64,000 bases of DNA from Crambe crambe (lineage: Eukaryota; Porifera; Demospongiae; Poecilosclerida; Crambeidae): contig OZ004597.1 of the NCBI GenBank assembly GCA_963924555.1, positions 3,738,404-3,802,403 on the forward strand, read 5' to 3'. Positions 776-63,395 of this stretch are shown piece by piece. The notes beneath the pieces are model-generated. The model was given only the letters and a program-made list of their open reading frames with translations. It searched no databases and was not told the DNA's origin. Made by a program: the position numbers and the translations under genes. The stretch's first letter is position 1. Every line of letters begins with the position of its first letter.

Positions 776-3700
776 ATGTCTCGAAACCTGAAGATATTTG
801 CATTCGTACTATTGCTTAGCGTTATTATAGCAGATGGACAAAGGATGGTGAAACTGCCTTGTTGTGGTAGAATGAGCCCAGATGACCTTGTGCAAGTTCG
901 TCGATATAGTAAGTACTATAGCTAGATAGCAGCCTATAGTTCAGTAGCTATAGCGTCTATATGCTGTGAGATTATCAGAGCTAGCTTTAGTCTGATAATC
1001 TCACAGCATATAGGTGCTCACCACTAGCAATCCAGCTAACAGTTGAATCTCTTGCCAGGTTTCTCCCCCTCTCGGGTTCGTCAATCCGTGTGCCCAACCA
1101 TCGCCAATGAGGCTAACAGTTTTAGAGGCATTCTCCTGCAACCTAATAACACCTTCCCTAGCAGACTGAACGGATGTTTCTTCATACCAGAATCTATACA
1201 GACCACAGGGCTCTTCAGTATCAGTCACAATCAGTACAACTGTTCTTCTAACTCTAACGTTCAGTGTGACCTACTTTTCATCTCCCCAGTGATGGAAATG
1301 ATAGCCAGTGGTGAATTTTTGATCCAATACAGGCCACCATCAGCATCAAACACAACCATCTCATTTATATATGGTGAGTGCTCTATTAAGTGTTCTCAAT
1401 GTACGCACAGCAAAATATTCAATGACCCACGTAACGTAATGTGGAATATGTTCCGTATGCAGCCATATATTAGTTATGGCTGAATACGGACCGTTATGGA
1501 CCCTTTACGGACCTATAACGTTCCGTAATTGGCTCACAGTTGAGCATGGACCCGTGGATAGTTTGCTGTGTAGCTAACCATTGGACTACAGCACCATAGC
1601 AACATACATAGACTTGACCACATGCATTGATCAATAGGTCCTGAAGGGATCTTCTTCAATGGAAGTACATCTAATGTGACAGTTGGTCAAAGTGGCTTAC
1701 AGTTTCTCTTTCGACCGAGTGATCAACCTACCAATCAATTCAATGTCTGTGAGGAAAATATTGGGAGTATAACAACTCAAACTCAAATATCTCCGTCAAG
1801 AGATTTTGAAACTTGTATTATTGCTGATGGTGAATTACAGAGTCTCTTTACTGTTCAAGTTACCTTTCCAAGCATTCAAGGGACCAAGGAGATTCGTCTG
1901 GTCAAGGGGGGGTGTGACTCACCGATCTTCAAATCAGCACCAATTAATGCAACATGTAAGTATGCCACTTGACACAGAGTTACAAAAAGAGTTACACCTT
2001 ATAGAGAATGAGAGAAAGACTGATCTCAGAATATACATTAAACTGTAGTGACCTCTAAAAGGTCATTATCCTTGTGCATTCCTAGATCCTCTGATCATCA
2101 AAGAAAGCTTCAGCACCAGGTCTTAATAATAATATATTATTTTTCTGCAGTCTTGAACACATCGAGCACCCCAACTATGAGCAGTGAGTTACATAATATG
2201 TATAAGTTAGCACTTGGCATCCCTCCCAGTAAATGTTTATCTTACAAGTTGTGACTTAGAATCCCTCTAATTAATGACACACCTTCTGTCTGTGCTGTTA
2301 CTGTTCTAATTGTTGCAATTAAGAAGCTCATTATCCCCCAATCACTTGGCATCCTAAACATAAGCTCTCCTGAGTGTCTGTGAGAAATAATAAACTAGTC
2401 AGATCATGTGTCCAGGAACATATGATTTTAAAAAGCCCTAGCCCTAGCCCTTAATAGCTCTAAGGTATAAGCATATTTATAGCAAGCTTAGTGACAAGCC
2501 ATGATTATATTTCTTGAGTGCATTAGTAAGGGATGGTCACTTGATAAAGAAGATAATGTGATTAGTGCTGTGTCACTCTGTAGTGATAATTGACCTTTAG
2601 TATTTGCTGATCGTGCAGATATTAATTAGCCACCAGATACAGTATTGAACCTGCATGGGGTGGGCATGTGGCAGCATGCACCTGTTACACACAGTTCAGA
2701 TCAACAAGGTCATGCAGTGCTGACATACATACACCTAGTGATGATCATGTCAGTTTCATGCTTGCAGCATCTTAAATTTGGCCAATTATAATCTTCTTCT
2801 TGACAACCATGACTCCCGACTGCTTCATCCTATATCTACGATCTTGGTACCATCTTAAAACTCTACACCTGAGGTAAGGATGTTTAATTTGAAGTAAAGC
2901 TCAAGTCCTAACTGTCAATTGCCATCCGAGTGCCTTCGTGGACGTTTGATAGCCATAACTCCCAACTGCTTCATCCTACTGTATATCTACAATCTTGGTG
3001 TCATCTTGAAGCTCTACACCTGAGGTAAGCCTAACTGTCAATTGCTGTGCTTTGAAAGTGCCTTCGTTGACGACTCAAACACTTTGTAGAATAGTCTAAT
3101 ACTACACTGGTTGATACCGATAGTATAACCATGAACCTTCTAATTCACGCAACACAGTTTATACACTAGAAAAAGAAACTGTCTTGCTGAGTTGCGGTGG
3201 GTGTGGTATTTGGTAAAGGGTTGTTCACAGTAGGCAGATACGTCGTTTCTATTTCTCCATCCAAGCCATCCGAGGAGCCAGATCATCCAGTGGACATGCC
3301 GAAAGAATGCCAACAGCAGTAGATCTGGTAAACTCGGAAGCACATCTCAAAATCTAAAAAGAAACATCTGCACAAGTTCATCATACTATTACATTTATTT
3401 TTGATCCACAATTACTCACTCGTTACCATATTTGACTTAATAAAAATTAAGGCTTGAAAAAAGTGTGCAAACAAGTGAGAGGAAAAACATTTCTTCTGAA
3501 TGAAAGAGTGGCGTAGGCTATGAATACATGACTATAAAAGTACGGAAACAAGGTGAGGTAGCTTGCTGGCTATGTACTGCATTTGTGCTCTGCTAACTGT
3601 CACAGAATTGACTACATTATTGCATGGACTGCATTTGTACTCTGCTAACTTTCATAGAATTGACATAAACCCTACATCGCTGCAAGGTGTAGATAATGTG

Positions 3701-5832
3701 GCAGCGGTTTATATGTCAATTCTATGACAGTTAGAGCACAGATGCAGATACAGTACATAGCCAGCAAGCTATCCCACCTTGTTTCCGTACTTTTTATAGT
3801 CATATACTCAAGCCTACATCACTCTTTCATTTAGAAGAAATGTTGTTCCTCTCACTTATAAATAAGGACTTGGTATCTACTGCTTGCGCATGCACTGATT
3901 TTTCACGCTTTTCCATCAATGTCACTATAATTGGGCGGGGCCTTGTTTCTATGACAGCTAGTTGGAACAATTATCATAATGGAAATTGCCGAAAGTTCTT
4001 CTCCAGCTCCAGCTACCAATGCCAATGATACTTGGTTCTCTGATACCATTGCTTTCCCTTGGAGACCTCATGTGGAGGAACAGAGCTTGGCCCATCAGGT
4101 TTGTCTATGAAGTATTTGTACGTCTGCCGACTGGTTTTGAGAAGACCCATTTGTAGTGGATGACCAGAACTTCTACTAGTCTCAGAAAGGTTTAGCCATG
4201 TGAGACTACAAAACTTTGTAATGGGAAAAGAGGTGTGGGAAGAGAAGCGCAGTTCTTGCTCCAAGAAAGAAGTGTGTGAGGGCCTCCATAATCACTCTTC
4301 AAAGTCTGCTTCCGAGGAGAACTTGGCTACAGAGTCATTACTTTTATTTTCCTGTGGCGTCATCAAATTAGCACTGTCTGTGGCACACTATAATGATATT
4401 TATATGTGGGTTGCATACGTGCAAACAGTGGATACCAGGCCTTTATTTATAAGGCCTGGGTATGAGGGTACTACATTATTGTGCTGCTTATGGCTCATGC
4501 CATGTGCCTGAGCTGCAGATACTTTGTACTACAATGACTCCTCTATCTGCATGCATGCACATCGTAATTATTTGCTCCCTTCCCCTCCTGCAGCCACTTC
4601 AACTACAGCTGGCACTACTACAGGAAGTCCTGATAATATAATTCTTATAGTCGTAATGCGTAAGTGTCCTTTTTCCATCGCATTCATGTACAATAATCAT
4701 ATAACAATTACCAATGCAGCTATTGCCCTCATAGTCATCATCATTGGTGTCATATTCATTATTATATGCTGCAAATGCTGTAATCATCGCTGTCAGAGCA
4801 AATCACTAGAGAGTAAGACTGAGTAATTACTGTGTCACAGTGCCTCCACCATTTACTTTCCCACAATAAGATCAGATTTTCTGATATTTTAAGTGTAATC
4901 CCCTATTATAATACTATAGTAGCTGGTCTACAGAGTATGCAAGTGGACACGCTAAAGGATATTGATGACAAAGGTGACAAAGATATGAAATCTCCAACAG
5001 CAATACCAAATGATTACGCAATGTTTCCTCTTGGTAGGTAAATGTAGTAATGATTGATAATACTCAAAATATGTTTTTCATTCCAGTTTCCAGCACAGGC
5101 TCCGAACAGCCAGTGTCCAGTGTGGCTTTTGTGACAGCTGAAGATGGCGAGAACTACCAGGAGTTGATGAGAAGGTTGGAGTCCTTGCATGACTGTGATA
5201 GGGTGAAGCCCTTTAGTGCCTCCGTCGTAGGCAGTGACAAACCATCTCAAACTGACTACCATCAAGGCATATCTCAGTGTCTGAGGAGAGAAAAGTGTTT
5301 AGTTTATATCATTTGGAGTGGAGCACTGGAGTCATTAAATGGCAATCAATGTCCTCCAATTAAGACTCTGATTCGGTCGCTTATGTTTCGTCCTTTGCGA
5401 AATGTATCTTCAAAGTCTGTAGAAAACGTAATGTACAAACTGATTCTTCTTCAGCTAGGGTCAAAGGGCAATAATAGGTTTGTTAGTACATCTCTGAACA
5501 GTACTCATATATTCTGGGAAGGCTCACCTGGTGATTCTGATTTTGACGCACAAAAATGTGCAGAACATGTCCATGGAATTGTGATGAAAAAATTAGAAGG
5601 AGTGAAATCAGAAAAACTCGTTACTCAAAAAACCACATCCTCACATTCATTTCCTCCATCTAATGGATCCTTATCACAGGATGCATTTCTTAAAATTGTT
5701 GACTCCAAACTTGATGCCCATGCAGAAAAAATTAAAAAGCATATCACCAGCGAAGCAAAGGGTGTGAAAGAAGCTGTGGACTGTGGATTTGAGAACATCA
5801 ATGAGAAGATAGACGATTCAAATTTAGCCTGA
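776..5832 (+). CDS. Receptor-like gene A: signal peptide, two extracellular modules, TM, cytoplasmic domain
   Basis: Eight exons: 776-908, 1059-1373, 1638-1955, 2151-2183, 4594-4659, 4720-4812, 4920-5033, 5087-5832; about 605 residues. Exon 1 gives a signal peptide (MSRNLKIFAFVLLLSVIIADG). Exon 2 is module 1 (CPTIAN... ILLQP... C...CDLLFI... GEFLIQYRPP... FIYG). Exon 3 is module 2 (GPEGIFFNGST... FLFRP... C...). Exons 4-5 are a Thr/Ser-rich stalk, and exon 6 a membrane helix (ALIVIIIGVIFIIICC) followed by a Cys-rich juxtamembrane stretch. The last exon encodes a soluble cytoplasmic region beginning VAFVTAEDGENYQELMRRL, with alternating predicted strands and helices, ending in a heptad-like helix (AFLKIVDSKLDAHAEKI). 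All seven introns are phase 1. Genes B and C are paralogues. A flavodoxin/TIR/SEFIR-like fold for the cytoplasmic domain is only a suggestion. A cell-surface receptor role is inferred from topology. Confidence 0.72.
957..1013. repeat. Perfect 23-bp inverted repeat (hairpin) in intron 1 of gene A
   Basis: Arms at 957-979 and 991-1013 are exact reverse complements (CTATATGCTGTGAGATTATC... at the outer left end), with an 11-bp loop. The RNA would form a 23-bp perfect stem. It could be a small foldback element remnant or a small-RNA-type hairpin; the sequence alone does not decide. Confidence 0.85.
2806..3030 (+). repeat. Two-copy tandem duplication in intron 4 of gene A
   Basis: A block of about 75 bp reading CTGCTTCATCCTATATCTAC... 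and ending in TCTACACCTGAGGTAAG recurs about 147 bp later (near 2953-3030) with small differences. Both copies end in a GGTAAG string that looks like a splice donor, but no open exon precedes either. Confidence 0.7.
3473..3857. mobile_element. Foldback/MITE-like element with arms of about 130-140 bp
   Basis: The left arm (3473-about 3611, starting AAGTGAGAGGAAAAACATTT) is nearly the reverse complement of the right arm (about 3713-3857). Landmarks such as GTACGGAAACAAGGTG and TAGCTTGCTGGCTATGTACT match in inverse order. The left arm also carries an internal partial duplication (GCATTTGT[G/A]CTCTGCTAACT twice). It has no coding capacity. It sits in the 2.4-kb intron 4 of gene A. No clear target-site duplication was found. 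Confidence 0.75.
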
Positions 5833-6597
5833 ATGATCTTGTTGTCAACTCACTCTTCTGTTCACTGTCATACATGACTCTCTTAATAGCATTCATCAAA
5901 CTTGTTTGTCACAGTGTCCCTTTATGATACAAAAATTTTGTGGAAAAAATGTATTCATGACCACCACACAAATGATATTATAAACAGCCCAATCGTGAAC
6001 ATACACCAACATCTATCCAGTGAGAGGTCACACTGGCATAGGAACAGGGGGGCCACAGGGGCCAGGCCCCCCCCCCCCCCATTATTTTCAGATAGAGGGC
6101 AGGGTCCCCCTTATGTTCAGCTATTATTAATTGCATAATTCAGGCCTGTAGCCAGAATTTAGATGGCTCAGGAATAATAATAATTGTGTTATTCAGATAT
6201 TTTCAATGTGTGAGAAGTGGTTATCAATTCAGCAAACTAATGCAAGTAACTATCAAAGGGAGGTGGGCTCAAGCCCGTTGAGCCACCTGCTGGCTACAGG
6301 CCTGTAATTGCTATAGCAGAATGCTTCCCTTTATCAAATTAAATAAGAAGCACTGTACATGTAGGACTGAATGTCGATAAATTAATTTTGGAGTTTGATT
6401 TTTTCTAAAAACTACCCCCCTATAAAAGAGGTCTCATGTAAAATTTCTAAATACCAGGAGCTGGTGAACTACTGACCCTCTTGTGACTCTGTATGCAGAA
6501 CAAACACTCACTTCCTCTAATGATTCATCATAGTGACAACCATAAAAAACCACATCCTAAATTTTACTTCCTCGTTGCTAGTGACAACCATGTAACC
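5833..6597. other. Spacer after gene A with poly-C tract and small inverted repeat
   Basis: Contains the gene A 3' region, a poly-C run near 6066-6080, and an inverted repeat with perfect 15-bp arms (CAGGCCTGTAGCCAG at 6141-6155 and its reverse complement at 6290-6304), which looks like the ends of a small nonautonomous element. Nothing convincing is encoded. Confidence 0.6.
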
Positions 6598-7320
6598 ATG
6601 GGTTGTGGTGTTTCCAATTCTATAGCTGTAACAGATTCACACACACCACCAGTGGATAGCAGTCAACTGAGACCACTCCTCTATCCTGAAAAGTCAACTG
6701 CAAGTGACAGCGAATCTCGATCTCAAGAATCACTGTGTTTTGAAGAGAGCAATGGAGATTTGAATCCAGCTGAAGATTCAGGGAATGTTGATAATGGTAT
6801 CTCATTACAAGTACACAATGGAGACCAACTACCACCCCTTGGTTGTAAGATAAGTGGTGGTGGAGCCAGTCAAGGACGTGCAATCTCAAGTGGTGGCTAT
6901 TGTGGAGTGGATCTTACATTAAGTGGGTGTGAAAGAGGAAGTGGAGAACGCACTCAAGCGCAAGGCCACCAGGAAGACAATTCCAGACTAGGCATTCCAC
7001 TTTGCAATCATGCTCAAACTGATCTTGCTTTGCAAGGAGTGCACCCGGACAGTATCGTGCACAAAAGAACAACTCCTTTCAATGAGGCTGAGCAAGGTGT
7101 TGTAGACAAACAACCTGAAACTTTGAACAGCAAGGATTTGCTTGTCTCTGATGTTAGTACACCCAATCAGCAGAATATACCAATAAGCTTATGCAGTGCT
7201 TCACTTGCAAAAACACAGGCTCCTTCTGGGCCAACCATGGGGTACAGTCTATCAAAGTGCTACAGCATCCAGAAGCTTCAGCTTCAATTAGGCTTCATTT
7301 CCAGCATAACAATTAATTAA
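6598..7320 (+). CDS. Candidate acylated Ser-rich protein (MGCGVSNS N-terminus)
   Basis: A 240-codon ORF from a well-placed ATG (ACCATGG context). The frame stays open upstream to 6493, but the internal start gives MGCGVSNSIAV. Gly2 followed by Cys3 and Ser6 is the pattern of dual N-myristoylation and palmitoylation, suggesting a membrane-tethered cytoplasmic protein. The rest is low-complexity: rich in Ser, Gln, Gly and acidic residues, with no recognised domain or membrane helix. It lies between receptor genes A and B on the same strand. It could instead be an alternative terminal exon of gene A (an AG acceptor-like site lies near 6495) or a chance ORF. An adaptor role is speculative. Confidence 0.4.
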   Translation: MGCGVSNSIAVTDSHTPPVDSSQLRPLLYPEKSTASDSESRSQESLCFEESNGDLNPAEDSGNVDNGISLQVHNGDQLPPLGCKISGGGASQGRAISSGGYCGVDLTLSGCERGSGERTQAQGHQEDNSRLGIPLCNHAQTDLALQGVHPDSIVHKRTTPFNEAEQGVVDKQPETLNSKDLLVSDVSTPNQQNIPISLCSASLAKTQAPSGPTMGYSLSKCYSIQKLQLQLGFISSITIN

Positions 7321-7333
7321 TTACACGTAATAA

Positions 7334-7340
7334 TACGTCA
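7334..7340. promoter_or_regulatory. CRE-like half-site upstream of gene B
   Basis: TACGTCA, a single-mismatch CRE/ATF variant, lies about 106 bp before the gene B start. Full palindromic sites precede genes A and C, which makes a shared regulatory input plausible. Confidence 0.35.
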
Positions 7341-7445
7341 TCAGTATTTTTAATTAACACTTCAAGGCCGGCTAGGCATGGCAGCGCAGACAGACGTATA
7401 TTTATTTATTAGCTAGCAAGTTTTTAGCGCATCAAAATTGCAAGG

Positions 7446-10401
7446 ATGATGCAGTGTCTCTTAAAATTGATCGTCTTGTGTATTTTGTTTGCTCAAGTCG
7501 CTGCTGCTTTCAATGTACAGTGCCCTCCGATGGAAGACTACAATCCCGTTCACCTAGATGAGAACGGCGTGCCTCCCAATCCATTTTACTATAGTAAGTC
7601 TTGTTCGACCTGGGGGGTAGCTTACTCGTGTTGCATATACAAGAAAAAATTCATTTGCCTAGCTAGGGACTCGACTAGCTAGCTAGCCAGCTTATTCGTG
7701 CTGCTGCAATAAGTTAGCCAAAAATTCATTTGCCTTTCTGTAGATATTGGGACTGCTGAGGGTAAGGTTTGTGGGCTTGAAAGAAATACGGTGTTGCAGC
7801 CAAATAGCTCACAAACGGGCGGTTGCTTCTACCATCGGGGAGTGAACGGCAGTCAGTTTACCCTGAGGCATATAGTGCAACCGTGCCATCAGTCAAAGAT
7901 AAGAGAGAGTTGTGATCAGCTGTGGATAAAAACTAATATCATTAACCTCCAAGGGAGTGGCTCGTTCTACATTAAATACATCCCACCTGACCCACCTGAT
8001 GGAGGAGGACAACCGATCAATATCAACGTGTCATATGGTACACTAACAGGAATTTATAAAAATTAATGAGTTAAACTTGGCTTTTTTTTTTTTTGCTTTT
8101 TTTTTCTGTAGGGGTTGAAGGCATAATGTACATTGGAAGTACTTCCTCAGATGGCAGTGTTCCGATTCCCATTACAAATGCTGGTATTGAGTTTGAAGTG
8201 AGAGTACACACACCAACTCCTTCTCCAATAGCCAAAATTTGCGAAAGTATCAATGGAATAGACTATAACCAGAGTTCACTGCTACGGGCCCATCCTACCA
8301 GACCCATTGCCGGATGTATCCCAGCAAGGATCAACACTCCATACCTCATACAAGTCATGTTCTCTCCCAATAATAATAATATAACCCTCACACCCAGAAT
8401 GATCGTTGTTACTTTCGGTAACTGTAACAGATCTAGCCTCCTCACATCAAAGCCTCTTTATGTAGTAGGTAAGGAAACTACATGTTGTTATGGATACGTA
8501 CATAAACAGTATGAGATCTCCTGTATTATCATAAGTGTATTAATAGGTGCAATAGGTGTGGGCACTACAAGTTCTGTTGAAACTGATTCAAGTTCCACCA
8601 CTGAACTGCTGCCATCAGCTACTCGTAAGTCATACTGCTGAGATCACTGTTGATAAGTCCAGATCATGTTCATGAATATTTGCTGCTGATTATGCATCAG
8701 CCTACAGGGTTCTGCCCAGAATTCTTGAGTGGTGGCCGAAATTTATTTTGCCCATGCCCACTTTATATTATAAGACTGTGTTCATTTAGGGGATGTCCCT
8801 TTGAATGATCAAAACCATCACTGATATGTAGTACAAGCTTAAAGTTACTGCAGCTAAGTATATGAGTGGTGGCCAAAATAGCCCAAGTGGTGGCCGAAAT
8901 AGTCGAGTGGTGGCCAAAATGGCCACTGTTGACCAGTGCGGGCAGAACCCTGAGCCTATATGAATCAAGGGGGCAGGGAGGGGATATTTTACTAGTTAGT
9001 CGCTATAGGGGCTATGCCTGATCCCCCCACTTATAAGGATGCACTAGTGCTTGTACTGTGGTTTGTAATCACTTGTGATTTAACATCTTGCTTGTTGATG
9101 CAGCTGGCAGCACCATAGAAGTGAGCCCAACAGCACAGTTGACCACCACCTCTACCAGCGAGACTAGAAACTCAGAACCTCAGACTGATACTCCAACATC
9201 AACTAGATTCCAGACTATTACCACACCCACCAACTCAAGTGAGTGCAATTAAATATGCTACTTTAGCAGCCAGTGAGGATTATAACAGTCTGCTCTTATT
9301 ATTACACTCAAGAATGACCAAAAGTCATCCGATCAACTCTGAGTTATAATCCTCACTACAACACAATAGCATTAGCTGATCACTCAAAATATAAGGGGAA
9401 AAATTGCAAGTTGGCTGTAAACTCCTCCTTTGTTTTCCCAGATATACAGAAAACAGAAAATCCTGATCATAAGATTATAGGCGGAATTGCTGGATTTGCT
9501 ATCATTTTGGTGATATTTTGTGTGACATTAATTATTTCGTATTTCCTCTGGAAATACAAAAAGAAAAGTGGTGATCCAGAGAAGCAGTGTGACTATGGTG
9601 ACGAAGGTAATCAAATAATTAATATCTTAGCATCATATGCTGTGACATTTTTGTGAGTAGAATGTTGAATCTTACTGTATATCATTTCCTTCCTGCAGAG
9701 CTGAAGTCAAAGGAATCTACAGATTCAAAGAAAGCTCATTGTCCAGACAAATTAACTAGTGAGCATTCATCTTTAGTGGTTTTAATTATTAAAATCACAC
9801 TTAGCCCTGAAGGGCTGGCCTTTATCCTATTATTCATTACATCACAATTGCAGGACCTGAAGACACCACTGTTGTACATGCAAATTTGAATTACAGACAC
9901 ACTCCATCCCCTGTGACTCGTATGCAGTTGAATTCCAATATATATGTAACACATTCAGAAGTCGAGAGTAAGGTAATCGAGAGCAAATGTTTACAGCAAA
10001 ATGTCAAGCGTGGAAGTTTCTCTGGATCAGAAGATGGGTCTGAAGTAGCCTTACTCAAAGTAATATCTAATCATCTCGTCTCCATTCATGACAGAGTTCA
10101 GGACAATGGAGCTGTTCTTGAAAATTTGTGTAAGTAACTATGTTACTCATTACTCCATGAGATGGTCAAAACACTGTGGATACAGTGATGTGATTTGGGG
10201 GCATGTATCAGTGTCTGGGTATTATTATGTTCATTGTTCAGGACCCTTCTTCAGCAGCTGAAGAGATTGCCAATAATCTTTAGATAGAGCATGCTTAATT
10301 GTCAACTCAACATTTAACCCTTATAGCATAATTTTATTATTCTTACAGCTGAACGTGTAGATGACAAAATCCTATCACCACAATCCAACTCAAGATCATA
10401 A
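7446..10401 (+). CDS. Receptor-like gene B: signal peptide, two modules, long stalk, TM, short tail
   Basis: Nine exons: 7446-7593, 7744-8037, 8112-8468, 8547-8624, 9104-9238, 9442-9606, 9699-9758, 9854-10129, 10349-10401; about 521 residues. It has a signal peptide (MMQCLLKLIVLCILFAQVAA), module 1 (VCGLERNTVLQP... CDQLWI... GSFYIKYIPP... VSYG) and module 2 (GVEGIMYIGST... FEVRV... C). A Thr/Ser-rich stalk is encoded by two exons, followed by a membrane helix (IIGGIAGFAIILVIFCVTLI) with a basic stop-transfer (WKYKKK). The cytoplasmic tail ends in a heptad-like helix (EVALLKVISNHLVSIHDRV). Unlike A and C it lacks the large cytoplasmic alpha/beta-like domain, so it may be a decoy or co-receptor version. 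All eight introns are phase 1. Two tandem ATGs exist and the first is used here. Confidence 0.72.
8863..8942 (+). repeat. Short tandem repeat GAGTGGTGGCCAAAAT in an intron of gene B
   Basis: The string AGTGGTGGCC[A/G]AAAT recurs three times at about 21-24 bp spacing, with an outlying copy near 8729. It is noncoding. Confidence 0.7.
9273..9356. repeat. Inverted repeat with 14-bp arms in an intron of gene B
   Basis: GTGAGGATTATAAC (9273-9286) is the exact reverse complement of 9343-9356, about 56 bp apart. It looks like a small MITE or a relic of one. Confidence 0.65.
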
Positions 10402-10508
10402 CTGCCCGCAGGTTCAAATCATAACAGTACTGTGCTTGCTTTTGTTTTTGTCTGTCTCTTCACATTTTGGTTATCATCATATCACTATACTATTATTAAT
10501 AATATCTC

Positions 10509-10516
10509 TGACGTCA
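10509..10516. promoter_or_regulatory. Palindromic CRE upstream of gene C
   Basis: Perfect TGACGTCA in the 260-bp spacer between the gene B stop and the gene C start, about 146 bp before the ATG. A GC-rich patch (GCGCAGCGCAGCGCGCG) follows at about 10539. Confidence 0.45.
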
Positions 10517-10661
10517 TTCTAAATTTAGAATTGCGAATTGCGCAGCGCAGCGCGCGATTATATTCGTGCATTAATAAAATTAATGGTGAGCTCAGCAAAA
10601 ACAGCTAGCCGGCCTATTGCAGTCGTAATGAGTAAATTTATCTAGAAGTATAATTTCGAAG

Positions 10662-13179
10662 ATGCAAACGTTGTTAATAAGTTTTCTTTTGGCATGGAGT
10701 GTTATTCTCGACCTCTCCACCGAAGAGCAGGAATCCTCGAGCTCTGGACAATATATGGATGTCCCCAGTGGTCCAAACCCCCAGATTGTAGGCCCGCTAG
10801 AGAGTTATGGTAAGGGCGCAGCTGATAATATCCTGCTAAGTCGCTAATCAGGTGTTAATTAGCTAGCTAGTAGCTATAATTATTATCCACCTTGAATAAT
10901 TAACTCATTTCATTTTGCAGCTCTCACTAATGGCAGCAGCATTTGCCCAGTTGTTCTTTCGGATACTGATGTGACACTGCTGCAACCAGGCTTGAGAGGA
11001 GTGTACAGAACTAGAAATTTGAATAATAATTTCTTCTCAGTTTACAGTACTAGTACAACATGTGATGTTGGTGCAATGTCATCCATGAGGTGTGATCAGC
11101 TTGTGATACAAAAGAACAATACTATCAGCAGGAGAGGAAATTTTTATGTTCAGTTCACTCCAATTGCAGGAAGTCAACCTATAGAAGTGGAAGTCCGATT
11201 TGGTAAACCATTGCTCATTAATAGTGATTAGCTAATTCATGCAAGCTTGCATGCATGTGACCATAAAAAATAATGTGTGCATGAATATATCTTGTGTAGG
11301 GCCTCCAGGGCTCATCTATGTGGGTGATACTGTCCCAGTCACAATTAGTCGAGAAATGCCTCTGGATTTTGAGCTGAGAATTTCCGACTTTAATGGAGTA
11401 AATATTCCAGAATCTATAGTTTGTGTGGATGAAGGAGCTGGCATATTTCGAAATAATGGAATGTTTAGGGTGATGCTATTAGATACAGACTGCATATTTG
11501 ATATATCAAATGGAACTTTCTCTCGACCATACTACTTTCGAGTGACTCTCAGTAATAGTAATGCTGTTACTGAAATGACTGAGCTGACAATAAAGTTGGT
11601 CTTGCTGGATGATTGTAATGTTTCTGATGAAAGAAGCAAAACACTTCGTGTCTTGGGTAAGAAAGTGTAGCTATAGTAAGAAAAGGTTTGCTCTAGTTAC
11701 TCCCTCCTTTTGTAGTTATGCCAGTGAACGTGATTACTTCAGCTCCACTGGAAAATGTGACAGGTATTACTTTTGCTGACATCATTGTGCATAGTGCAGT
11801 AATCATAAGTGTATTCATAGCTGCTAAGATCATGCCATTAATTTTATCTCGACTTTATTGCATCATTTTTATAGATCCAAGCAATGTCACTGAATTTATG
11901 CCAACAGGACCAGAATCTCCTACAAATAATGGTAATCCTGAGGAGTGATTTACATTAATGCTTATAATTCATTATAATTATTATAGTTGGACTGATTGCT
12001 GGTGTTACATTTGCTGCTGTCCTTGTCACATTCGTAATAATAATATTGGCTGTGATAATCTGTGTACTGTGCAAGAAAGGCAGATGTAGTGATGTTGAAT
12101 CAAACCAAGAAAGTTAGTAGTGCCAAAATCAAAATGTCACTCTGTAATCTTTTTCTTTACAGCAAGGTATATCTCTGTAATTTCTGATGTATCGGATGGA
12201 GAGAAAATTTCCAAACTCACCAAAGTGCTCCAGGAGAAATGGGATGCTCAGGATTATCCTGTTGATGACGATTCTATACTTTCAGAATTATCAAATCAGA
12301 GAATTAAAAAATTCTACATTATGTTGGAAGGACCGTCAGAAGAGAGCGAAAATAACTCACAACGAATGCAGTTATTGGAGAGAGCTGCTCAGAATCATCC
12401 TCAGGTTAAGCATAAAATTGCTGTTATTAATTTTGAGTGTGAAAGGGACAGTGAAAGGATTATTAAGGACTCCTTCACTTGTGTGGATATCAGACACGGT
12501 GATGATTCTTCCACCTTTTGGGCTGAAGCTGCAGATAGAGTGTTCCATGCTACACACAACATTTCAGCTAACAGTGCAGATACTTCAACCGCATCATCAC
12601 ATGAGATTGATGGGGGACTTAGCACTTCTAGCTCACCTCCAGGTAGTGGCGGTTTTCCTGATCAGCAGCGTGCAAATGGAACAAGGAATGGTGGTGCTCT
12701 CTCCTGGCCAGCGACAAGAAGAAAATATCATGTCAGTAAACCCAAGAACTCAGACAAAAGTGACTCGAGTTTGAAGCTTATAATGGATGGGCTTGGTAAG
12801 TGTGAGGAAACTCTCCTTGTATTATGAGATCTATCTAAGATCTCCACCCTTGAAAATCAAAGCCTCTGGGCTAAAATAGAACAGATGTTTCAATCATGCA
12901 GATTCATTAATTTGGGTATTGCTATTATTTTGCATTCACAGGTGCAGTACACCAAATAGTGAAGAAACAAAGTGAGTTCAATAGTGAAATATGATGCATG
13001 AATGAATTTTATCTTAATGATAGGTGCAGATGTTAAGGAGATAAAAGAAATGTCTTCCTTGACAAATGAAATGGTGGAGAATCAAAGTATGTGCATATAC
13101 TTTACCAGTTAAAATCACTTAACTACTTTTTTTATCCAAAGGTGAAAAGCTTGATAATCTCAGACTTTCTGACCAGTGA
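10662..13179 (+). CDS. Receptor-like gene C: signal peptide, two modules, TM, cytoplasmic domain, helical tail
   Basis: Ten exons: 10662-10809, 10921-11202, 11300-11656, 11716-11763, 11875-11931, 11987-12112, 12163-12795, 12942-12971, 13024-13086, 13142-13179; about 593 residues. It has a signal peptide (MQTLLISFLLAWSVILDL), module 1 (ICPVVLSD... LLQPG... CDQLVI... GNFYVQFTP... VRFG) and module 2 (GPPGLIYVGDT... FELRI... C). A short stalk leads to a membrane helix (GLIAGVTFAAVLVTFVIIIL) and a basic/Cys juxtamembrane stretch. The cytoplasmic domain starts RYISVISDVSDGEKISKL, shows strand-helix alternation, and has a Ser/Gly-rich linker. The last three tiny exons encode a heptad-like helix (VKEIKEMSSLTNEMV). 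All nine introns are phase 1. A TIR/SEFIR-like fold is possible but not demonstrated. The gene ends only 225 bp before the ATM start. Confidence 0.75.
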
Positions 13180-13404: not shown

Positions 13405-58995
<45,591 letters not shown>

Positions 58996-60420: not shown

Positions 60421-61310
60421 CTTTTGTTAAAAGAAGGTCTGACAAAACTGCTAAGGAATGAATTAATGTATATCACAGTTAATGTGGGTGTATCGAGCCG
60501 CAGAGCAGCTCAATATACCCAAACACTCAAGTTTCTAGCTATGGACTTGACTCAACAATGAATCTTGACACTCTAAGTGTCCAACGTTACAAAGAGGTGA
60601 GGGGGAGAAAGAAAGAAAAAGAGAAATATGGTTCAAAGGTCAATAGCTACTACGACTGTAACAAGCCTAGCCAGGCTGGCGAAGATAGAAACAAGTGGCC
60701 AGAGACTGCAATAAGCCTAGGCCAGTGAAGAATGCAGGGCTGTAGCAACCTAGCAAGTAAGATGCCAGAAAACTGCATAGGAAAAGCCTCACTGAAGGAA
60801 GAAGAGCACAGCACAGAACCCCAATTGCATGCAATTTCAATTGATTGCCACAGGTGCAGGCTAGTATCTATTCATAGTGCACATCTTTCATTATGTGCAG
60901 TCAGTGTATTTCCTGTATGCAGTCACCTTTGCAGAAGTTATAGTAGGAGAAAAATTCACTCTTTCTATGACCATTAGTAACATACATGCGTGCCTATCCA
61001 AGTCTGTTGAATACTTCAGATCCTAGAGAAGAGAAGTTGGGACATGGAGGAGAGCCAATCATGCCAATGAGACAACTGAAGAAAGAAGAACATCTAAGGA
61101 AGTCTCAAAAAACGTCAAATAAGCAGGCAAGACATGCTACTCAGCACAAGAAGCCAGCATTTAATCAGTCTTTCTTATCAGCCTGAGCATGCTGAGGTCA
61201 TCCACACAACCACCATATTAACCACACCATCGCACTAACGTAATCTCTTAATGATATTCATAGTAGTGTCATGTGATACAGTACAGTATACACACATTGT
61301 GCATCTGAAA
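60421..61310 (+). other. Upstream region of the TRIM-NHL gene
   Basis: AT-rich sequence with short unsupported ORFs (60732-60977, 60986-61186). It probably contains the TRIM promoter or 5' UTR; no specific motif is convincing. Confidence 0.4.
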
Positions 61311-63395
61311 ATGTCTGAAGAAACTATCAAGAAGCTTGAAGAAAGACTCAAGTGTGCCATCTGCCTTGACACCTATACTGACCCTAAACTGCTCCAGTGC
61401 TTCCATATCTTCTGTAGAGACTGTCTGGTGCGACTGGTGGTCCGAGACCAACAGGGACAACTCTCCCTGACTTGCCCTAACTGTCGTCATACCACACCCA
61501 TTCCAGCCAATGGAGTGGCAGGCCTCCAGTCAGCATTTCATTTCAATGACTTCTTAGAAATTGTGGAAGAGCACAAGAAGCCTAAGGATACAGCAACCAG
61601 TCAGAAAGGTGATGTGGCACTCCCCGATCCTTCAAAGAAAGTCTCTCCTTACTGCTCTGTTCATGCTGATAAAGAACTGGAGCTGTACTGTGAGACATGT
61701 GGGGAGTTGATCTGCTTTCATTGCTCACTACGAGGTCAGAAACATCACAGTCACGAGTATGACTTGATCAGCTCGTGTTATGAGAAGTACAAGAAAGAGA
61801 TTACCCCATCACTGGAGCCAGTGGAGAAGCAACTCGCGTCTGTCAAGAAAGCACTGGCACTTTTGGATGAGTGTTGTGGAGAGATATCCGACCAGCGAGC
61901 AGATGTCGAAGATGACATACATCTCACCACCCAATGGTTCCATGAAATTATCGATATCAGAAAGACTGAGTTGATAAACCAGCTACACCAAAAGACTCAG
62001 GAGAAGCTGAAAGGCCTTGCAGTCCAGAGAGACGAGTTGGAGACCATCCTGGCCAAGTTGAGCAGCTGTATAGAGTTTGTGAGAGAGAGCCTGAAAACAA
62101 GTAGTCAGGGAGAAGTAATGAAGATGAAGACGACCATAATCAAGCAAGTGAAGGAACTAACTGCTACATTCCAACCAGATGTATTAAAGCCCAACATGGA
62201 AGCTGGCTTAAAATTTGAAGTTTCAGCTCATGTCAGTGTAATGATTAAAAACTACGGTCAAATCTGTGTACCAGGAAGTCCAGACCCTTTACAATGCCAT
62301 GCAACAGGTAAAGGTGTGGAGGTAGCTGTGATTGGAGAGAAATCTACTGCTATTGTTCAGGCTAATGACTTCAAGGGTAAACCGTGTGAGAAACAAGTAT
62401 CGCTGCAATGTGAGCTCATATCGGAACTAACAGATGCTGTGGTGAGAGGCAACATAAGGAGAAGAGGAAAGAGCTGGTACGAGATCAACTACCAACCTAC
62501 CATCAAGGGGAGGCACCAACTACACATCAAAATCAAGGACCAGCACATCAGAAGAAGTCCATTTCCTGTGACAGCAAAGATGCCTGTTGAGAAACTGGAT
62601 ACTCCAATCCGAGGTATCTATAGAGTGATCGGTCCCTGGGGAATAGCCATCAACAAGAAGGGAGAATTGGTGGTAACAGAGTATTATGAACATCGTGTAT
62701 CAGTGTTCAGTCCCGGTGGAGAGAGGATTCAATGGTTTGGCACACATGGCTCTGGTCAAGGACAGTTTGACCATCCTTGTGGTGTGGCAATTGATGGCAA
62801 AGGAAATCTTTTAGTGGCTGACAATTTCAATAATTGTGTTAAAAAGTTCACAGGGGATGGCCAGTTTCTTGAAGCTCTTCATTTCATCGACATCACGAGC
62901 ATTGCATTCAATACTAAAAACAACAAAATATATGTAACTGATTCTCATAAGAGTTGTATCCAAGTTTTGAACTCTGACCTCACCTTTTCTAGCACTTTTG
63001 GGAATTTCGGTAGTGGCAAGGGACAGTTTGGGAGTTCAAATCATGTATCCTGTGACAGCTCTGGGAAAGTATTCGTGGCCGATTATTATAACAATCGTAT
63101 TCAAGTATTCACAGCTGAGGGAAGATTCGTGAGGATGTTTGGGCGACCTGGTAGTGGCCGTGGGGAGCTAAACGGGCCTATTAGTATTTTTATTGATGCT
63201 GATGGAATTGTGTATGTCACTGAGAGTGTGAATCATCGTATTTCAGTCTTTACCTCTGAGGGTCGTTTTGTGACATCATTTAGTAGCAGGGGACAAGGAC
63301 CAGGACAGTTTATTAGTCCTCGTGGCATAGCAGTGGACGACAATGGAGTAGTGTATGTGTGTGACTTACATGTTCATCGCATTCAATTATTCTAA
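61311..63395 (+). CDS. TRIM-NHL protein (RING, B-box, coiled coil, filamin repeat, NHL propeller)
   Basis: Uninterrupted 694-residue ORF, single coding exon. The frame is open 20 codons further upstream, but the ATG at 61311 (MSEETIKKLEERLKCAICLD) gives the normal TRIM start just before the RING. The C3HC4 RING uses Cys15, Cys18, Cys30, His32, Cys35, Cys38, Cys55 and Cys58. The B-box2 is at about residues 115-150 (CSVHADKELELYCETCGELI). A BBC coiled coil follows to about 290, a filamin/ABP280-type repeat at about 300-425 ending RRSPFPVTA, then five to six NHL repeats (GVAIDGKGNLLVADNFNNCV, VFVADYYNNRIQVFTAEGRF, GIAVDDNGVVYVCDLHVHRI). The architecture matches TRIM2/TRIM3/TRIM71-class proteins: RING E3 ubiquitin ligases whose NHL propeller binds RNA or protein partners. 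One-to-one orthology cannot be claimed, since invertebrates have lineage-specific expansions. It is probably nested in ATM if ATM continues to the right. All zinc ligands are present, so it is likely functional. Confidence 0.95.
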   Translation: MSEETIKKLEERLKCAICLDTYTDPKLLQCFHIFCRDCLVRLVVRDQQGQLSLTCPNCRHTTPIPANGVAGLQSAFHFNDFLEIVEEHKKPKDTATSQKGDVALPDPSKKVSPYCSVHADKELELYCETCGELICFHCSLRGQKHHSHEYDLISSCYEKYKKEITPSLEPVEKQLASVKKALALLDECCGEISDQRADVEDDIHLTTQWFHEIIDIRKTELINQLHQKTQEKLKGLAVQRDELETILAKLSSCIEFVRESLKTSSQGEVMKMKTTIIKQVKELTATFQPDVLKPNMEAGLKFEVSAHVSVMIKNYGQICVPGSPDPLQCHATGKGVEVAVIGEKSTAIVQANDFKGKPCEKQVSLQCELISELTDAVVRGNIRRRGKSWYEINYQPTIKGRHQLHIKIKDQHIRRSPFPVTAKMPVEKLDTPIRGIYRVIGPWGIAINKKGELVVTEYYEHRVSVFSPGGERIQWFGTHGSGQGQFDHPCGVAIDGKGNLLVADNFNNCVKKFTGDGQFLEALHFIDITSIAFNTKNNKIYVTDSHKSCIQVLNSDLTFSSTFGNFGSGKGQFGSSNHVSCDSSGKVFVADYYNNRIQVFTAEGRFVRMFGRPGSGRGELNGPISIFIDADGIVYVTESVNHRISVFTSEGRFVTSFSSRGQGPGQFISPRGIAVDDNGVVYVCDLHVHRIQLF

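What the first reader, a model, noticed from the sequence alone, without database searches (positions are those of the whole stretch)
776..13179. Tandem cluster of three paralogous receptor-like genes of an unrecognised family
Seen: genes A, B and C share order and exon layout: signal peptide; module 1 (C... LLQP... CD-x-L... G-x-F-[IV]-[QK]-[YF]... [YF]G); module 2 (G-x-x-G-[IL]-x-[FY]-x-G-[SD]-T); Thr/Ser stalk; one TM; tail ending in a heptad-like helix. I cannot place modules 1 and 2 in a known extracellular fold. Inference: a lineage-specific, possibly rapidly evolving surface receptor family, perhaps in self or microbe recognition.
Basis: partly seen in the sequence, partly recalled or inferred. 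Interest (0 to 1): 0.85.

Follow-up and report, generated by a model that had tools for sequence, protein, structure and literature searches.

The report
Three sister orphan sponge receptor genes
Three neighbouring genes in a sponge genome encode related cell-surface receptor-like proteins whose outer parts matched no described protein family; only three copies were found, so it is a real orphan family but not shown to be a self-recognition or fast-evolving system.

Summary
Three tandem genes (A 776-5832, B 7446-10401, C 10662-13179, all +) splice into type I membrane proteins of 605, 521 and 593 aa; all 24 introns are GT-AG and phase 1. They are true paralogues: BLASTP E 1e-8 to 1e-14, and two-gene profiles recover the third. 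Order: signal peptide, module 1, module 2, stalk, TM, diverged tail, related C-terminal helix. Pfam and PDB sequence searches place neither the modules nor the tails. The hoped-for expansion is not there: a consensus query of the 143-Mb genome returned 6 matches, the six module exons, and a profile found no further copy in 230 kb upstream or the rest of the window. Selection, fold and function could not be tested; structure prediction was off. My idea that the A and C tails hide a SEFIR/TIR domain got no statistical support. Best reading: a small receptor family sharing one head, with diverged tails. In passing: three tandem IL-17-like genes and an Fn3-TM-SEFIR receptor elsewhere in the genome.

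The parts
776..5832 (+). Gene A, 605 aa; exons 776-908, 1059-1373, 1638-1955, 2151-2183, 4594-4659, 4720-4812, 4920-5033, 5087-5832
   Evidence: open CDS, 7 GT-AG introns all phase 1
1059..1373 (+). A module 1 exon
   Evidence: aligned with B and C module 1
1638..1955 (+). A module 2 exon
   Evidence: aligned with B and C module 2
4594..4812 (+). A stalk end and transmembrane segment (two exons)
   Evidence: Kyte-Doolittle peak 3.51 at residues 282-300
5087..5832 (+). A cytoplasmic exon: unplaced region that looks alpha/beta by eye, plus C-terminal helix
   Evidence: no Pfam or PDB sequence match; helix related to B and C
7446..10401 (+). Gene B, 521 aa; exons 7446-7593, 7744-8037, 8112-8468, 8547-8624, 9104-9238, 9442-9606, 9699-9758, 9854-10129, 10349-10401
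   Evidence: open CDS, 8 GT-AG introns all phase 1
7744..8037 (+). B module 1 exon
8112..8468 (+). B module 2 exon
8547..9238 (+). B Ser/Thr/Pro-rich stalk (two exons)
   Evidence: S+T+P 0.51 over 82 residues, the last of them from the next exon
9442..9606 (+). B transmembrane exon
   Evidence: Kyte-Doolittle peak 2.78 at residues 349-369
9854..10401 (+). B short tail with C-terminal helix; no counterpart seen of the A and C cytoplasmic region
10662..13179 (+). Gene C, 593 aa; exons 10662-10809, 10921-11202, 11300-11656, 11716-11763, 11875-11931, 11987-12112, 12163-12795, 12942-12971, 13024-13086, 13142-13179
   Evidence: open CDS, 9 GT-AG introns all phase 1
10921..11202 (+). C module 1 exon
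11300..11656 (+). C module 2 exon
11987..12112 (+). C transmembrane exon
   Evidence: Kyte-Doolittle peak 3.45 at residues 308-326
12163..12795 (+). C cytoplasmic exon: unplaced region of about 130 residues, then linker and start of the C-terminal helix
   Evidence: no Pfam above cut-off, no PDB match below E 0.5
12942..13179 (+). C C-terminal helix exons; last intron shared with B

Best explanation
A, B and C are a small single-locus family of type I membrane glycoprotein receptors of a sponge, made by tandem duplication. Shown from sequence: one related head (two cysteine-containing modules on phase-1 exons), a stalk, one hydrophobic TM segment, and a related C-terminal segment in all three; the tails between TM and that segment differ (a domain-sized region in A and C, none seen in B). 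Inferred: the modules are beta-sandwiches diverged beyond sequence detection; the head binds a ligand on another cell, a microbe or in the matrix; binding clusters the receptors; the C-terminal helix pairs the tails or docks a common adaptor; A and C add a signalling domain that B lacks, so B would act as a co-receptor, decoy or modulator.
For: Gene structure and phases; homology of heads; hydrophobic N-terminus and single TM in each, and 7, 6 and 6 N-glycosylation sequons before the TM in A, B and C. Six ectodomain cysteines are shared by my count (five are invariant in the alignment; the sixth, in module 2, lies one column apart), and gene C lacks both the cysteine of the N-terminal exon and the 'GCF' cysteine of module 1, as if one disulphide had been lost whole (my reading). 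Related C-terminal helix with a shared intron in B and C. The first six exons correspond in order in all three.
Against: No ligand, expression or localisation data. No fold could be predicted. Gene A has an odd number of ectodomain cysteines (9). The A and C cytoplasmic regions are not detectably related to each other (global z -1.3), so a common signalling domain is not shown. Module 1 and module 2 are not clearly related to each other (2 of 9 cross pairs p<0.05).
Confidence: 0.5

Rival explanations
1. Divergent IL-17R/SEFIR-like (or TIR-like) receptors: the region after the TM in A and C is a degenerate SEFIR/TIR domain that recruits SEFIR-Death adaptors; B is a decoy.
For: By eye the C tail alternates strand and helix in the order of that fold. 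The genome holds TM-SEFIR receptors and SEFIR-Death proteins and IL-17-like ligands.
Against: hhalign: 7 of 7 comparisons (A, C or both against two own-genome SEFIR profiles, and A against C) at probability 0.62% or less. Global alignments of A and C to 5 SEFIR sequences: 10 of 10 not significant, A against C z -1.3, while 8 of 10 SEFIR pairs beat shuffles, one of them only at p 0.023. No Pfam SEFIR or TIR hit at E up to 10, with HMMER's filters on.
Confidence: 0.17
2. Allorecognition receptors of the Hydractinia Alr kind: polymorphic tandem genes with hidden Ig-like domains that bind themselves on neighbouring cells.
For: Similar anatomy to Alr as described: single-pass proteins, low identity, clustered genes, placed in the Ig superfamily with the help of AlphaFold (passages of PMC11067881). 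Homophilic binding of Alr is recalled.
Against: [quoted passage not shown] no polymorphism data; no Ig match.
Confidence: 0.08
3. Adhesion or matrix-binding proteins with little signalling of their own.
For: Stalked heads with glycosylation sites and cysteines; no recognised signalling domain.
Against: Long tails with a related C-terminal helix kept in all three.
Confidence: 0.17
4. Gene-model artefact or decaying copies.
For: No transcripts; a 2.4-kb intron in A (2184-4593) holding repeats; 4 of 27 exons not best in the modelled frame by codon usage.
Against: Open frames over 27 exons, 24 of 24 phase-1 GT-AG introns, codon bias of the whole CDSs, shared protein motifs at 25-30% identity.
Confidence: 0.04

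Closest known systems
Hydractinia Alr family (allorecognition complex)
   Same: clustered single-pass surface proteins of low mutual identity, assigned to the Ig superfamily with the help of structure prediction (passages of PMC11067881)
   Different: Alr is a large, polymorphic, Ig-superfamily set; here three genes found, no Ig evidence, polymorphism unknown
IL-17 receptors (Fn3-TM-SEFIR), with an own-genome example in L036
   Same: ectodomain of modules in front of one TM and, in A and C, a domain-sized cytoplasmic region plus a C-terminal extension
   Different: no Fn3 and no SEFIR detectable in A, B or C
Sponge Ig-TIR receptors (TIR with extracellular Ig, passages of PMC12909245; the name IgIR is recalled)
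   Same: sponge membrane receptors with a possible immune role
   Different: no Ig and no TIR match in A, B or C

Membership tests
IL-17 receptor family | cytoplasmic SEFIR domain (PF08357) | tested here: not met
   no hit at E up to 10, HMMER filters on; profile and global alignments not significant
IL-17 receptor family | extracellular fibronectin III-like domains | tested here: inconclusive
   no fn3 in the Pfam scans; the A1 profile did not list L036 at E up to 5; structure not predicted
TIR receptors (TLR/IL-1R/Ig-TIR) | TIR domain (PF01582, PF13676) | tested here: not met
   no hit at E up to 10, HMMER filters on
Immunoglobulin superfamily / Alr | Ig-like fold of the ectodomain | tested here: inconclusive
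   no Pfam or PDB sequence match; fold prediction unavailable
Alr-type allorecognition | allelic polymorphism in a large cluster | not testable with these tools
   one assembly only; three genes found
Filamin-type repeat | PF00630 match | tested here: not met
   the end of module 1 looks alike by eye; Pfam no hit; shuffle test against the filamin repeat of the window's TRIM gene p 0.011 (A), 0.61 (B), 0.083 (C)
Type I membrane receptor (general kind) | signal peptide, ectodomain, one TM, cytoplasmic tail | tested here: met
   hydropathy and gene models; by sequence only, no dedicated signal-peptide predictor was run

The most novel reading that the evidence does not exclude
A sponge-specific receptor family with a previously undescribed two-module extracellular fold, in which one ligand-binding head is paired with different tails joined only by a C-terminal assembly helix: a self-contained signalling set at one locus.
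Probability: 0.15. Interest if true: 0.7.

Novelty: new variant of a known kind. Interest (0 to 1): 0.38.

Why it matters
If the heads are a hidden Ig or Fn3 relative, the genes add to the early history of animal receptors; if the fold is new, they are a rare receptor head outside the known superfamilies. As they stand they are an orphan family, which is common in animal genomes (recalled), so interest is moderate.

Tried and rejected
SEFIR/TIR in the A and C tails: considered, not supported. Internal duplication of module 1 and module 2: not supported. Filamin-like module 1: suggested by eye, not supported. Weak outside matches were judged chance: L008 on C5 (E 6.8), a place on C19 (E 4.1), and L013 on C10 with the A tail (E 0.49 in the genome; 0.003 in the small set; its alignment, a Ser-rich stretch, was seen). 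Pfam matches below cut-off, mostly over the stalk or TM, were set aside: TMEM154 on A (7e-5), DUF3149 on B (0.00094), DUF7147 on the C tail (0.0045). Relatives in prokaryote and viral collections: none confirmed among 36, 12 and 74 pattern matches (the tail alignment was not run on genome contigs).

Full report
What was checked. The window is bases 3738404-3802403 of contig C20 of a 143-Mb genome. I spliced the three genes by hand from GT-AG sites; each gives one open reading frame of 605 (A), 521 (B) and 593 (C) residues. All 24 introns are GT-AG and phase 1, and the first six exons correspond in order (signal peptide, module 1, module 2, two stalk exons, TM; in A the TM starts at the end of the fifth exon). 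Codon usage trained on three other coding stretches (two in the window, one in L036) prefers the modelled frame in 23 of 27 exons.

Are they related beyond chance? Yes. Whole-protein BLASTP gives 8.5e-12 (A/B), 1.0e-8 (A/C) and 1.1e-14 (B/C). For the same module in two genes, 6 of 6 pairs beat shuffles (z 4.0 to 11.7). Profiles built from two genes find 5 of 6 module exons of the third at E<0.001 among 7,919 reading frames, and A module 2 only at 0.24. The C-terminal helices are related more weakly (p 0.0035, 0.0010, 0.0090), helped by an intron at the same point in B and C.

What the modules are. Unknown. hmmscan of the three full proteins, the six module exons and the A and C cytoplasmic regions against Pfam gave nothing above a curated cut-off. 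Profiles of the ectodomain, of each module and of the A and C tails, and the A tail alone, found no PDB chain below E 0.1; the best was 0.11. By eye both modules are strand-rich, and the end of module 1 resembles a filamin or Ig-type hairpin, but tests did not support it.

How large is the family. Three genes found. Single-sequence searches of the whole genome found little beyond the query genes, and their power is low: C found B module 1 only at E 0.078, B found neither other gene at E<=10, nor did A module 2; A module 1 was asked only at E<=0.001. Tail queries found themselves and one chance match. A consensus query is stronger: it returned 6 matches at E<=10, and they are the six module exons of A, B and C, the weakest (A module 1) at 0.0016. 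The consensus comes from these genes, so recovering them is expected; the weight lies in finding nothing else. From the leave-one-out values, scaled for genome size, I estimate that a fourth gene as distant as these would usually show in at least one module, but not always. A three-gene profile found no more copies in 230 kb upstream and in the rest of the window; the best other frame had E 0.53. The 200 kb downstream of the window could not be fetched.

Host. Of 24 cathepsin-like matches in the genome I read four fragments: L044 has CGSSYAF and L045 CGCSYAF, with serine where cathepsins have cysteine; L046 and L047 have the cathepsin-like cysteine. That this serine marks silicatein, and so a siliceous sponge, is recalled. 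The species is not identified.

Mechanism. Shown from sequence: type I layout, shared heads, related C-terminal segment, diverged tails. Inferred: ligand binding by the head, clustering, and assembly through the helix, with B as a modulator since it lacks the cytoplasmic region of A and C. I considered that this region is a hidden SEFIR/TIR domain, because the genome has such receptors. The tests failed: hhalign probabilities were 0.62% or less in all 7 comparisons, and 10 of 10 global alignments to SEFIR sequences were within shuffle noise, whereas 8 of 10 SEFIR pairs beat shuffles. It stays a minority reading.

Literature. Eight searches were made: sponge SEFIR, IL-17R, IL-17 or lineage-specific tandem receptors, allorecognition, orphan genes and the sponge genome. 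No title or abstract start that I was shown names this family. Four lists were cut (15 of 34, 15 of 32, 10 of 11 and 12 of 262 papers), and the library holds open-licence papers only, so this is not proof that it is unpublished. I read only passages of PMC6321704, PMC8353272, PMC12909245, PMC11067881, PMC5450542, PMC11797021 and PMC4517768.

Side finding. The genome has 5 SEFIR matches, all over the cut-off in the genome search; as whole proteins 4 of 5 pass. L036 is one reading frame with Fn3 (28 bits, cut-off 25), a TM by eye and SEFIR (26.1 bits, 22.6 against 23). L034 has SEFIR and Death, L037 caspase, SEFIR and Death on neighbouring frames. The IL-17 family model gives 4 matches, 2 over cut-off, three of them in tandem on C13; of the three frames read, 1 passes the whole-protein cut-off (28.3; the others 23.0 and 21.5 against 24). 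[quoted passage not shown]

Noticed in passing
G000:C13:1356162-1360056 (L048, L049, L050): Three tandem IL-17-like genes in a sponge genome; a CPW-x-YECDYNP motif stands in two of the three frames and a looser form in the third (by eye). 2 of 4 genome matches over cut-off, 1 of 3 frames over the whole-protein cut-off. Two papers report no IL-17 in a sponge.
   Followed up: partly
L036 (C16), L035 (C14), L034 (C12), L037 (C19), L038 (C20:1026182): Fn3-TM-SEFIR receptor, a TM-SEFIR receptor, SEFIR+Death, caspase+SEFIR+Death, and a further SEFIR protein: possibly an IL-17-type pathway in a sponge.
   Followed up: partly
6598-7320: Open frame of 240 aa starting MGCGVSNS (myristoylation-like start, recalled rule) between genes A and B; no Pfam match.
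   Followed up: partly
3473-3857: Palindromic element with arms of 47-50 nt, 91-92% complementary, in the long intron of gene A; two-copy repeats about 150 bp apart lie at 2800-3029.
   Followed up: no
61239-63395: TRIM-type gene: RING, B-box, filamin repeat, NHL repeats.
   Followed up: no
26091-26654: 57-bp unit repeated about ten times at 94%, open in two forward frames and one reverse frame.
   Followed up: no
53582-56018: Long array of a roughly 106-bp unit, 99% uniform over its last 6.9 copies.
   Followed up: no
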